Assembly (NCBI RefSeq): GCF_016765695.1
Contig: NZ_JAETGO010000069.1
Span: forward strand, 1 to 64,000
Length of the DNA stretch: 64,000 nt
Origin: Sporosalibacterium faouarense
Lineage (GTDB): Bacteria; Bacillota; Clostridia; Tissierellales; VENL01
Reading direction: 5' to 3'
How positions within the stretch are numbered: position 1 is the first letter of the stretch; each line of letters starts with the position of its first letter. A program made the position numbers and the translations under genes. Below the pieces are notes generated by a model, which worked only from the letters and a program-made list of their open reading frames with translations, had not been told where the DNA came from and ran no database searches. This document shows, piece after piece, positions 12,071 through 14,514 of the stretch.

Positions 12071-12099
12071 TTGCTAAAAAAATAGAATGGTGCTATAAT
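12071..12099 (+). promoter_or_regulatory. Strong extended -10 promoter for the microprotein region
   Basis: TTGCTA (12071-12076) and TATAAT (12094-12099) are separated by exactly 17 bases, and TGC before the -10 gives an extended -10. Transcription should start near 12106, about 47 bases before the 28-aa peptide gene. Confidence 0.8.
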
Positions 12100-12152
12100 G
12101 TAAGACGTTGGTAAATAATGAAATAATTTTTAAAAAAGGAGGTCGTATTTTG

Positions 12153-12239
12153 ATGATTATGACTAATAAATTAAAAGGATTAAAGAAAATAGAATACAAA
12201 TTAGAAATATGCGGCCCGGGATTAGGTTTTAAGAATTAG
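12153..12239 (+). CDS. 28-aa peptide with CGPGLGF C-terminus
   Basis: This small reading frame follows a textbook ribosome site (AAGGAGGT, 12136-12143) and a strong promoter. The N-terminal 18 residues are Lys-rich (NKLKGLKKIEYKLE) and the C-terminus is ICGPGLGFKN, with a single Cys at position 20. An in-frame TTG and a second ATG sit next to the chosen start. It lacks the core of the microproteins downstream. It is followed after about 70 bp by a terminator-like hairpin, so it could be a free-standing peptide, a precursor or a leader peptide. I do not recognise it. Confidence 0.65.
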   Translation: MIMTNKLKGLKKIEYKLEICGPGLGFKN

Positions 12240-12306: not shown

Positions 12307-12340
12307 AGTCGCAGGCTGATGTCTGCGACTTTTATATTTT
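12307..12340 (+). terminator. Terminator-like hairpin 1
   Basis: AGTCGCAGGC and GTCTGCGACT pair over 10 bp (one G-U) with a TGAT tetraloop, followed by TTTATATTTT. The 3' arm sequence GTCTGCG is perfectly complementary to CGCAGAC in the 5' arm of hairpin 3. Confidence 0.7.
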
Positions 12341-12461
12341 ATAAGCTTTTTTACATAGATGAGTTAAAATTTGGTTAAGATGAATTTACTTAATGATTGA
12401 GATTATGACTTATTTAGAACTTTATATCTTTGAGGATATATTTAGCTTAAAATTGCAAAAA

Positions 12462-12490
12462 GTCGTGGGAGAAATCCTACGATATTTTTA
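12462..12490 (+). terminator. Terminator-like hairpin 2 with GAAA loop
   Basis: TCGTGGGA and TCCTACGA pair (one G-U) around GAAA, a GNRA-type tetraloop, followed by TATTTTTA. The flanks (AGTCG before, TTTTAT..AAGC after) resemble those of hairpin 1, suggesting duplication. Confidence 0.6.
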
Positions 12491-12493
12491 TGT

Positions 12494-12526
12494 AAAGCGC
12501 AGACGGTATTAGTCTGCGCTTTTTTC
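12494..12526 (+). terminator. Terminator hairpin 3, just before the array
   Basis: AAAGCGCAGAC and GTCTGCGCTTT form a perfect 11-bp stem with a 7-base loop and a T run. It lies 39 bp before the first microprotein start, so transcription from 12106 must pass it or the array must have its own promoter. Confidence 0.75.
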
Positions 12527-12564: not shown

Positions 12565-12675
12565 ATGATATCAATATTTTTCGATAAGTGTCAGGAGTTA
12601 GATTTAAAAACTCAAAAAAGAGATATTGGATTAGAAGAGTATCAAAAACATGAGTACAGAAAGCTCAAGAAATAA
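12565..12675 (+). CDS. Array microprotein 1 (36 aa)
   Basis: The ATG lies eight bases after AGGAGGTGAT, a complete match to the ribosomal anti-Shine-Dalgarno. Residues 17-33 carry the array core QKRDIGLEEYQKHEYRK. The N-terminal half (ISIFFDKCQELDL) is more hydrophobic than in the other copies and has one Cys. The peptide should be largely helical and basic. No function is recognised. Together with the next five frames it forms a tandem paralogous set, all on one strand and spaced by ribosome sites only. Confidence 0.75.
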   Translation: MISIFFDKCQELDLKTQKRDIGLEEYQKHEYRKLKK

Positions 12676-12702: not shown

Positions 12703-12807
12703 ATGAATTATATTATTGAAAACTTAAAGTTGAAATTGAGATATGAGAGTCAGAAGAGAGATTTAGGTTATGAAGAATATAAAAAACATGAGCTTAAAAG
12801 AAAGTAG
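12703..12807 (+). CDS. Array microprotein 2 (34 aa)
   Basis: AAGGAGG (12687-12693) lies nine bases before the ATG. The core at residues 17-33 is QKRDLGYEEYKKHELKR, preceded by LKLKLRYES, which closely matches KHKVKYES in copy 3. Net charge is positive. Codons differ from copy 1 at synonymous positions while the core is kept, which supports translation. Confidence 0.75.
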   Translation: MNYIIENLKLKLRYESQKRDLGYEEYKKHELKRK

Positions 12808-12843: not shown

Positions 12844-12948
12844 ATGCTAAATTTTCAAGGCTTAAAACATAAAGTTAAATATGAAAGTAAGAAAAAGGAT
12901 ATAGGATTACATGAGTATTTAAAGCACGAATACAAGAAATTAATATAG
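12844..12948 (+). CDS. Array microprotein 3 (34 aa)
   Basis: AGAGGT (12831-12836) precedes the ATG by seven bases. Residues 16-32 read KKKDIGLHEYLKHEYKK, the array core with His in place of the first Glu of EEY. The first half (NFQGLKHKVKYES) is closest to copy 2. Confidence 0.75.
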   Translation: MLNFQGLKHKVKYESKKKDIGLHEYLKHEYKKLI

Positions 12949-12969: not shown

Positions 12970-13071
12970 ATGACTTATACGCGCCAGGAAATGATGGAAA
13001 AGATGGGGCTTAAAGAGCAGAAAAAGGATATAGCAGTTGAGGAATATATCAACAAAGAATTTAGGAGGTGA
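12970..13071 (+). CDS. Array microprotein 4 (33 aa)
   Basis: GGGGTGA lies about six bases before the ATG. The core is QKKDIAVEEYINKEFRR (residues 17-33), with Ala-Val instead of Gly-Leu and Asn-Lys instead of Lys-His. The N-terminal half is Met-rich (QEMMEKMGLKE). Its final AGG AGG TGA codons are themselves the ribosome site of copy 5, so the two are tightly coupled. Confidence 0.72.
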   Translation: MTYTRQEMMEKMGLKEQKKDIAVEEYINKEFRR

Positions 13072-13075
13072 TATG

Positions 13076-13180
13076 ATGTTATATTTATTTGAAGAGAGAG
13101 TTAAAAATATAAAGTTTAAAGGTCAAAAAAATGACAAGGGTCTAGAAGAGTATTTGAAGCATGAATTTAGAAAGAAATAA
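13076..13180 (+). CDS. Array microprotein 5 (34 aa)
   Basis: Of two adjacent in-frame ATGs, 13076 has the better spacing (seven bases) from AGGAGG at 13063-13068. The core is QKNDKGLEEYLKHEFRKK (residues 17-34). The first half is MLYLFEERVKNIKFKG. The ribosome site lies inside the end of copy 4. Confidence 0.74.
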   Translation: MLYLFEERVKNIKFKGQKNDKGLEEYLKHEFRKK

Positions 13181-13211: not shown

Positions 13212-13298
13212 ATGTTAACTATAACGATGAATTGTAAATTTAAGAAAGCATTAGGTCTTAATCAATTTCTAAGCTTAAAATCTGAGCATAACACTTAG
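13212..13298 (+). CDS. Array microprotein 6, divergent (28 aa)
   Basis: GAGGAGG (13199-13205) lies six bases before the ATG. KKALGLNQFLSLKSEH can be aligned with KKDIGLEEYLKHE of the other copies, but the acidic Asp and the KHE are lost. It may be a decaying or specialised member. It has one Cys and is the same length as the 28-aa peptide that opens the region. It ends 18 bp before a closing hairpin. Confidence 0.6.
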   Translation: MLTITMNCKFKKALGLNQFLSLKSEHNT

Positions 13299-13316: not shown

Positions 13317-13347
13317 CCATAAGGGCTTCGTATTGAAGTCCTTATGG
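13317..13347 (+). terminator. Hairpin closing the microprotein array
   Basis: CCATAAGGGCTTC pairs with GAAGTCCTTATGG over 13 bp (one G-U) around GTATT. The downstream sequence has few T residues, so it may be a weak terminator or an RNA 3'-end stabiliser. Confidence 0.6.
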
Positions 13348-13392: not shown

Positions 13393-14514
13393 GTGGCAGA
13401 TTTAAGAATAAAAAAATTAGCGGAACTTTTAGTAAATTATTCATTAAGAATAAAAAAAGGAGATTATCTATTAATTGAAGGATCAGATATAACTCAACCA
13501 TTAGTAAAAGAGGTTTATAGAGAGGCTATTAAAAAAGGGGCTAATGTGGATACAAATATTTTTATAGAGGATTTATTAAAAATTTTCTTTGATAATGCCA
13601 GTGAGGACCAACTGAAATTTGTGAATCCATATACGAAATTTAGCTCAGAACGCTATGATGCTATTTTGACATTATGGGGAGGCTACAATGAAAAAGCGCT
13701 ATCTAATGTGGACCCTAATAAAATGAAAATGAGAAGTGGGGTCATGAAGGATGTATATGTGAAGTTTGGTGAAAGAATTGCAAATGGGGATTTAAAATGG
13801 TGTGGGACTCAATTTCCAACCCATGCCAGTGCTCAAGAAGGTAGCATGAGCTTAGAAGAGTATGAGGACTTTGTTTATGATTCAATGCTTCTTAACGAGG
13901 AAAGCCCTATAGATCAGTGGAAAAGAATATCTAAGGAACAGGAAAGAATTTGCGAATTTTTAAATACTAAAAAAACTCTACATATTAAATCTAAAGATAC
14001 TGATTTAAGAATGAATATAGAAGGAAGAAAGTGGATTAATTGTGATGGTAAGGAGAACTTCCCTGATGGTGAAGTTTTTACAACCCCAGTGGAAGATTCC
14101 GTTGAAGGACATATTAGATTTAGTTTTCCCGCCATATATAACGGTAAAGAGGTAGAAGATGTAAGGTTGGAATTTAAAGAAGGTAAGGTTGTCGATGCAA
14201 CAGCTGTTAAAGGAGAAGATCTTCTATTAGCTTTAATAGATACTGATGAAGGGTCAAAGCGTCTTGGAGAAATCGCAATTGGAACGAACTATGGAATTCA
14301 GAAGTTTACAAAGAATATTTTATTTGATGAAAAAATTGGAGGAACTATCCATGCAGCATTAGGCGATGGACCCAAGGAAACAGGCTCTAAAAACGAATCT
14401 GGAATCCATTGGGATATGATATGTGATATGAAAACAGATAGTGAGATATATGCCGATGGTGAGCTAATATATAAGGATGGAAAGTTTACTGTTGATTTTG
14501 ACTTAAATATTTAA
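13393..14514 (+). CDS. M29 family (thermophilic-type) aminopeptidase
   Basis: The 373-aa product starts at GTG behind GGGGGAG. It shows the M29 pattern: AELLVNYSLRIKKGD at the N-terminus, EEYEDFVYDSM in the middle, then NFPDGEVFTTPVEDSVEG carrying metal-ligand acids, GTNYGIQ, and the C-terminal HAALGDGPKETGSKNESGIHWDMI and DGELIYKDG. These are cytoplasmic, cobalt- or zinc-dependent aminopeptidases that finish peptide breakdown. It follows the microprotein array and is 11 bp before the GNAT-fusion gene. Confidence 0.9.
   Translation: MADLRIKKLAELLVNYSLRIKKGDYLLIEGSDITQPLVKEVYREAIKKGANVDTNIFIEDLLKIFFDNASEDQLKFVNPYTKFSSERYDAILTLWGGYNEKALSNVDPNKMKMRSGVMKDVYVKFGERIANGDLKWCGTQFPTHASAQEGSMSLEEYEDFVYDSMLLNEESPIDQWKRISKEQERICEFLNTKKTLHIKSKDTDLRMNIEGRKWINCDGKENFPDGEVFTTPVEDSVEGHIRFSFPAIYNGKEVEDVRLEFKEGKVVDATAVKGEDLLLALIDTDEGSKRLGEIAIGTNYGIQKFTKNILFDEKIGGTIHAALGDGPKETGSKNESGIHWDMICDMKTDSEIYADGELIYKDGKFTVDFDLNI

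What the first reader, a model, noticed from the sequence alone, without database searches (positions are those of the whole stretch)
12307..12526. Three related hairpins with mutually complementary arms between promoter and array
Each hairpin looks like a terminator and they appear to be diverged repeats. GTCTGCG in the right arm of hairpin 1 is perfectly complementary to CGCAGAC in the left arm of hairpin 3, so a long-range pairing would break both terminators. This could be a switch that lets transcription into the array, or simply duplicated terminators.
Basis: partly seen in the sequence, partly recalled or inferred. Interest (0 to 1): 0.68.

Follow-up and report, generated by a model that had tools for sequence, protein, structure and literature searches.

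The report
Translation-sensing RNA switch before micro-gene array
The three hairpins are the off-gates of a conserved RNA switch that probably opens when ribosomes stall on a tiny upstream gene; in related Clostridia the same switch sits in front of multidrug pumps, so the unknown string of ~34-residue mini-proteins behind it here is probably part of a drug or translation-stress response.

Summary
The hairpins are real (12307-12330, 12462-12483, 12494-12522). GTCTGCG (12321-12327) is exactly complementary to CGCAGAC (12498-12504). But that pairing is not the switch. The conserved partner lies outside the reported interval. A short leader ORF (12153-12239) has a Shine-Dalgarno strand (region 1, 12140-12147) that pairs with region 2 at the ORF's end (12207-12223). 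Region 2 can instead pair with hairpin 1's left arm (region 3), which otherwise pairs with its right arm (region 4) as a terminator.

I found this leader at 53 places in the order and at six more in other Clostridia; ten loci tested match nothing in Rfam. Helices 1:2, 2:3 and 3:4 each covary; mismatched controls do not. In ensemble folding, a ribosome placed on the leader start converts hairpin 1 to 2:3, and one at the stop codon restores it. The same leader precedes exporters (ABC, MFS, EamA), GNAT acetyltransferases and arrays of unknown ~34-aa ORFs. The closest known system is bmrB-bmrCD-type ribosome-mediated attenuation.

Complementarity among the hairpins is no more than their mutual resemblance explains (directional tests P about 0.06). 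How polymerase passes hairpins 2 and 3 is unresolved. Ribosome sensing and drug induction are inferred, not shown. New attenuator family, known principle.

The parts
12071..12099 (+). promoter-like site, TTGCTA-17-TATAAT with TG before the -10
   Evidence: best-scoring site of the region (10 of 12, with TG); a -35/-10-like block is kept in L015 and L016
12140..12147 (+). region 1: Shine-Dalgarno strand AGGTCGTA of the leader ORF (GGAGG at 12138-12142)
   Evidence: covarying helix with region 2; swap test
12153..12239 (+). leader ORF, 28 codons, MIMTNKLKGLKKIEYKLEICGPGLGFKN
   Evidence: an ORF with Shine-Dalgarno reading through region 2 in all 29 non-redundant loci, stop usually 11-26 nt after the CC of region 2
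12207..12223 (+). region 2: ATATGCGGCCCGGGATT, pairs either with region 1 or with hairpin 1 left arm
12307..12330 (+). hairpin 1 (regions 3 and 4), terminator and the main gate
12462..12483 (+). hairpin 2, second terminator-like stem
   Evidence: tandem terminators in 28 of 29 non-redundant loci
12494..12522 (+). hairpin 3, third terminator, strongest U-tract
12565..12675 (+). micro-ORF 1 (36 aa) of the array
12703..12807 (+). micro-ORF 2 (34 aa)
12844..12948 (+). micro-ORF 3 (34 aa)
12970..13071 (+). micro-ORF 4 (33 aa)
13076..13180 (+). micro-ORF 5 (34 aa)
13212..13298 (+). micro-ORF 6 (28 aa), diverged last member
   Evidence: profile hit E 9.8e-8; the sequence was itself in the profile
13317..13347 (+). 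terminator-like stem at the end of the array, weak U-tract
13393..14514 (+). M29 aminopeptidase, likely read-through cargo
   Evidence: PF02073, 1.3e-95; M29 gene also beside arrays in L015 and, by its N-terminal sequence, in L082 and L083
14526..17618 (+). 1030-aa protein with N-terminal GNAT acetyltransferase domain
   Evidence: homologue lies directly behind the same leader in L016 and L143

Best explanation
A ribosome-mediated transcription attenuator controls the micro-ORF array (and perhaps the M29 and GNAT genes behind it). Shown from sequence: three mutually exclusive helices, namely 1:2 (Shine-Dalgarno strand with anti-Shine-Dalgarno strand), 2:3 (region 2 with the left arm and loop of hairpin 1) and 3:4 (hairpin 1, a terminator). 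Inferred: with no ribosome on the leader ORF, 1:2 and 3:4 form and transcription ends at hairpin 1. When a ribosome runs freely to the stop codon it covers region 2, so hairpin 1 again forms. When ribosomes are held at or near the leader start (for example by a ribosome-targeting drug or another translation block), region 1 is masked, region 2 captures region 3, hairpin 1 cannot form, and polymerase reads on. Hairpins 2 and 3 are further off-gates. Region 4, once freed, could delay hairpin 2 by pairing with its left arm, but this step is only weakly supported.
For: Homologous leaders at 53 places in the order were collected, mostly with a covariance model seeded from nine loci, eight of them array loci; 52 with usable hairpins reduce to 29 non-redundant ones. 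Own-against-swapped duplex energies: 1:2 -14.6 against -11.4 (P 2e-4); 2:3 -13.0 against -9.9 (P 2e-4; also within array-like loci P 0.001 and within the other loci P 2e-4); 3:4 -13.8 against -8.0 (P 2e-4). Controls region 1:4, region 1:3 and region 2:4 show no excess (P 0.51-0.68). Column covariation on 25 loci: 1:2 has 4 pairs and 15 cells with both sides changed, 2:3 has 4 pairs and 21 cells, 3:4 has 6 pairs and 34 cells; 0 of 500 shuffles reach the covariation score in each. Region 2 falls in all three codon phases (12/11/6), so the RNA and not the peptide is conserved; the commonest stop position is 15 nt after its CC. Ensemble folding of the window: ribosome on Shine-Dalgarno and start gives 2:3 about 9-10 pairs and 3:4 about 1; ribosome at stop gives 3:4 9.8 pairs and 2:3 0. 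Cargo: multidrug-type ABC exporters at 30 of 53 places, others MFS, EamA, GNAT, DJ-1/PfpI, as expected of a drug-responsive attenuator (B. subtilis bmrCD, PMC4191407; Listeria hflXr, PMC6310831).
Against: No RNA, ribosome or drug data. With a free leader the window's ensemble is balanced rather than clearly off (1:2 about 4.4 pairs, 2:3 5.2, 3:4 5.1 at hairpin 1 end). With the ribosome on the start, only about 11 of 29 loci switch to 2:3 at equilibrium; in most of the others 2:3 wins only before region 4 is made. The window's own 2:3 helix has two internal mismatches. Four divergent loci (G057, G133, G068b, G031) lack the AGG anchor or have weak 2:3 pairing. Nothing found explains passage through hairpins 2 and 3. 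The tests are not corrected for phylogeny, and for 2:3 the hairpin alignment was anchored on the AGG that pairs with CCT.
Confidence: 0.76

Rival explanations
1. One reading: hairpin 1 right arm pairs with hairpin 3 left arm, breaking both terminators.
For: Perfect 7-nt complementarity; own pairs stronger than swapped ones, P 0.0014 over 9 loci and 0.014 over 10 loci.
Against: Forms 0.0-0.2 pairs in the ensemble of the window; the reverse arm combination shows the same excess; forward against reverse P 0.065; most exporter loci have only two hairpins.
Confidence: 0.05
2. Relay variant: once region 2 captures hairpin 1's left arm, the freed right arm pairs with hairpin 2's left arm, and so on, so one event opens several terminators in turn. 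This is an extension of the best explanation rather than an exclusive alternative.
For: Before hairpin 2's right arm is made, the freed arm pairs with hairpin 2's left arm in 25 of 28 loci; in 8 of 28 it still wins when hairpin 2 is complete; forward pairing is slightly better than reverse (-10.3 against -9.1, P 0.059).
Against: Not significant; similar hairpins alone would give it; in the window hairpin 2 mostly re-forms and hairpin 3 is untouched.
Confidence: 0.2
3. Plain tandem terminators, duplicated, that insulate the array from upstream transcription; no switch.
For: Hairpins are intrinsic-terminator-like and resemble one another.
Against: A promoter lies upstream of them and none directly between hairpin 3 and the array; 2:3 coevolution and the conserved leader ORF are unexplained.
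Confidence: 0.08
4. A trans-acting factor (RNA-binding antiterminator protein, small RNA or metabolite) recognises the repeated CGCAG or CATAGG stems or the 1:2 helix, and the leader ORF is incidental.
For: Conserved stem core shared by all hairpins of a locus.
Against: Stem cores change together with region 2 between loci; loop sequences vary; the ORF with Shine-Dalgarno and stop is kept in all loci; no Rfam riboswitch match.
Confidence: 0.12

Closest known systems
bmrB-bmrCD attenuator of Bacillus subtilis (Reilman et al. 2014, PMC4191407)
   Same: Short translated leader ORF, alternative anti-anti-terminator/antiterminator/terminator stems, cargo often a multidrug ABC exporter; there shown to be induced by ribosome-targeted antibiotics and to need leader translation.
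   Different: There the alternative stems are encoded within bmrB itself (162 nt) and a single terminator is described; here the ORF is usually 22-35 codons, region 1 is the leader's own Shine-Dalgarno strand, terminators lie downstream of the ORF and are in tandem, and cargo includes micro-ORF arrays. Homology of the two RNAs was not tested.
rli80-hflXr attenuator of Listeria (PMC6310831)
   Same: Small leader ORF overlapping the anti-anti-terminator region; antiterminator against terminator; start-codon mutation blocks induction by lincomycin.
   Different: 14-aa ORF with an RLR stall motif; no tandem terminators described in the passages read; different cargo.
trp-type leader-peptide attenuators
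   Same: 1:2 / 2:3 / 3:4 logic.
   Different: No run of codons for one scarce amino acid is seen in the leaders.
T-box and riboswitch leaders
   Same: Conserved 5' leader with terminator.
   Different: No Rfam match above threshold; switching strand overlaps a translated ORF.

Membership tests
leader-peptide (ribosome-mediated) transcription attenuator | short leader ORF with Shine-Dalgarno upstream of a terminator | tested here: met
   present in all 29 non-redundant loci
leader-peptide (ribosome-mediated) transcription attenuator | mutually exclusive anti-anti-terminator, antiterminator and terminator helices | tested here: met
   with negative controls
leader-peptide (ribosome-mediated) transcription attenuator | ribosome position changes the outcome | tested here: inconclusive
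   ensemble folding only: clear for the window, equilibrium switch in about 11 of 29 loci; no experiment
leader-peptide (ribosome-mediated) transcription attenuator | induced read-through depends on leader translation | not testable with these tools
   needs reporter or RNA-seq data
bmrB-bmrCD attenuator (same RNA family) | two-gene multidrug ABC exporter as cargo | tested here: inconclusive
   two adjacent ABC exporter genes in the exporter loci read at 4 kb; the window's own locus has none; best PDB hits are ABCB1-type, BmrD (7m33) further down
bmrB-bmrCD attenuator (same RNA family) | homologous leader sequence | not tested
Rfam families (riboswitches, T-box, known leaders) | match at gathering score | tested here: not met
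   no match in ten leader loci at gathering; only sub-threshold matches in the window

The most novel reading that the evidence does not exclude
Tandem arrays of ~30-36-aa peptides (motif K-D-x-G-L-x-E-Y-x-K-L-E-[YFL]-[RK]) are a new class of effectors of an antibiotic or translation-stress response, switched on by the same attenuator family that controls multidrug exporters; in addition, the serial terminators with interchangeable arms open as a strand-exchange relay.
Probability: 0.2. Interest if true: 0.82.

Novelty: new variant of a known kind. Interest (0 to 1): 0.64.

Why it matters
It adds an attenuator family absent from Rfam, with three covarying, mutually exclusive helices, found across the order (probably Tissierellales) and sporadically elsewhere in the class. 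It links multidrug exporters, GNAT acetyltransferases and otherwise featureless micro-ORF arrays into one putative regulon. That gives the arrays, which match no Pfam or NCBIfam family and no solved structure, a first testable function: a response to blocked translation.

Tried and rejected
(1) Rfam on the window and on ten leader loci: nothing above threshold. (2) The second own-genome hit of the leader DNA (C78) is an AT-rich chance match. (3) The stem core CGCAG..CTGCG is not a genome-wide terminator repeat: four places in 4.1 Mb against one in the reversed-pattern control; besides the two in the leader there are one at C1:653 (not examined) and one upstream of what looks like a glutaminyl-tRNA synthetase gene. 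(4) Hairpin-to-hairpin pairing as the main switch: rejected by the reverse-direction control and ensemble folding. (5) Leader peptide sequence as the sensor: region 2 is read in all three frames, so a stall peptide conserved at that place is unlikely. (6) Naming organisms through the genome-contig scan gave only three records, including Thermohalobacteraceae CSMAG_120. (7) A phylum-wide covariance-model search gave one hit outside the class, a false positive at what looks like an alanine dehydrogenase start, so hits below about 38 bits need inspection. (8) Literature searches found no description of the element or the arrays; Dar et al. 2016 was not held.

Full report
OBSERVATION. The window has three terminator-like stem-loops at 12307-12330, 12462-12483 and 12494-12522 (4 found in 4 kb against 0.8 expected). 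They lie between a promoter-like site at 12071-12099 and five homologous ORFs of 33-36 aa plus a diverged sixth. The stated 7-nt complementarity (12321-12327 with 12498-12504) is exact. The leader folds with z -4.7.

WHAT WAS MISSED. Between promoter and hairpin 1 lies a 28-codon ORF (12153-12239) with a strong Shine-Dalgarno. Its Shine-Dalgarno strand (AGGTCGTA, region 1) is complementary to a strand near its 3' end (TGCGGCCC, within region 2). Two relatives of the same family carry the same arrangement with compensating changes: GGCTGTA/TACAGCC and GGTCGCT/AGCGACC. In the other (L016) hairpin 3 runs straight into a homologue of the window's 1030-aa GNAT gene. The helix is strongly supported: 97% of cells paired, 5 of 8 pairs with both sides changed, 0 of 500 shuffles.

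DISTRIBUTION. A covariance model of this helix and leader, seeded from nine loci of which eight carry arrays, found matches in 46 of 249 genomes of the order. I assembled 53 places from these hits and from the array loci and read them. By cargo: 17 have one to seven micro-ORFs of the same family; 30 have a multidrug-type ABC exporter as the first gene, with a second exporter gene next to it where 4 kb was read (Pfam-tested on examples; the rest by their matching N-termini); two have a GNAT protein, one a DJ-1/PfpI protein and one an MFS transporter; two could not be judged. Elsewhere in the class the leader precedes ABC exporters (L140, L145), EamA transporters (L141, L142) and the GNAT protein (L143). 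A phylum-wide sample gave no true hit outside the class. The order is probably Tissierellales, judged from the one named relative and the genome sizes; this is an inference.

SWITCH ARCHITECTURE. At nearly every locus region 2 has the form (anti-SD)-CCT-NNN and hairpin 1's left arm NNN-AGG. Array loci mostly have CCTGCGA with TCGCAGG. Exporter loci mostly have CCTATG with CATAGG. Variants change on both sides: CCTGCAA with TTGCAGG in G018, and CCTACA with TGTAGG in G043b. Over 29 non-redundant loci the own 2:3 duplex averages -13.0 kcal/mol against -9.9 when partners are swapped between loci (P 2e-4). This holds within the array-like loci (P 0.001) and within the others (P 2e-4). 1:2 and 3:4 behave likewise, while the combinations region 1:4, 1:3 and 2:4 show no excess. 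Column counts agree. Mutually exclusive helices that all covary are the signature of an attenuator.

ROLE OF TRANSLATION. Region 2 lies within the ORF and is read in all three codon phases (12/11/6), so the RNA is what is kept. The stop usually follows its CC by 11-26 nt, most often 15, so a terminating ribosome would cover region 2. In the window, masking the Shine-Dalgarno and start gives about 9-10 pairs of 2:3 and about 1 of 3:4; masking the stop region gives 9.8 pairs of 3:4 and none of 2:3. That is the trp/bmrB logic. In B. subtilis, bmrCD is induced by ribosome-targeted antibiotics through such a leader (PMC4191407), and Listeria hflXr likewise (PMC6310831). Drug induction here is an inference from this logic and from the cargo, not a result.

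THE CROSS-PAIRING IN THE FINDING. Hairpins of one locus resemble each other, so arms of different hairpins match better than swapped arms (hp1R:hp2L -10.3 against -7.7). But the reverse control hp2R:hp1L shows the same excess, and forward against reverse gives P 0.059 for hairpins 1 to 2 and 0.065 for 1 to 3. In the window's ensemble the 1-to-3 pairing is absent, while the freed right arm of hairpin 1 competes modestly for hairpin 2 (2.8 pairs when hairpin 2 is just complete). Before hairpin 2's right arm is made, such pairing is possible in 25 of 28 loci. A relay is therefore possible but unproven. Tandem terminators in 28 of 29 loci may simply tighten the off state.

CARGO. The micro-ORFs match nothing in Pfam, NCBIfam or the PDB. 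They also occur beside what reads as an M29 aminopeptidase gene without this leader (L082, L083) and in G440, where the upstream divergent reading frame looks like an XRE-type regulator. They are therefore an independent module that this switch has adopted. Their function is unknown; joint control with exporters and acetyltransferases points to drug or translation stress.

LIMITS. No expression data. E-values of the model are rough. The covariation tests are not phylogeny-corrected. How polymerase passes hairpins 2 and 3 is open. Names of most genomes are unknown.

Noticed in passing
window:12565-13298; L029, L030, L031, L033, L034, L071, L072, L074: Family of tandem 28-36-aa ORFs with C-terminal motif KDxGLEEYxKLE[YFL]RK, up to seven detected per array (near-identical copies spaced 223 bp in L029), no Pfam, NCBIfam or PDB match; the last ORF of several arrays ends in a threonine.
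   Followed up: partly
L082:2860-3400, L083:2790-3300: Micro-ORF array followed by an M29 aminopeptidase-like gene without the leader; upstream carries repeated TTAGAAAGATATCT-like words, possibly operators.
   Followed up: no
L081 (G440) and L032 (G010): Micro-ORF arrays with a shared promoter word GTTGAATTATAGTTTAC; in G440 the divergent upstream frame looks like an XRE/TPR-type regulator.
   Followed up: no
L033, L034, L085, L086: Micro-ORF, terminator, then a complete new leader-hairpins-array cassette: units repeated in tandem at one place.
   Followed up: no
L104:1700-1800 (G008): The ABC exporter frame behind hairpin 2 appears to have lost its ribosome-binding site and start by a deletion compared with G048.
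   Followed up: no
G089:C124:23620 and 50229: Two copies of the leader with identical model score in opposite orientation about 27 kb apart, both before an ABC exporter gene.
   Followed up: no
L080 minus strand, about 2600-2690: Hairpin cluster with the same CGCAG/CCTGCGG core (GGGAGAAATCCTACACGCAG..CCTGCGGAGTC..) upstream of what looks like a glutaminyl-tRNA synthetase gene; possibly a T-box, not tested.
   Followed up: no
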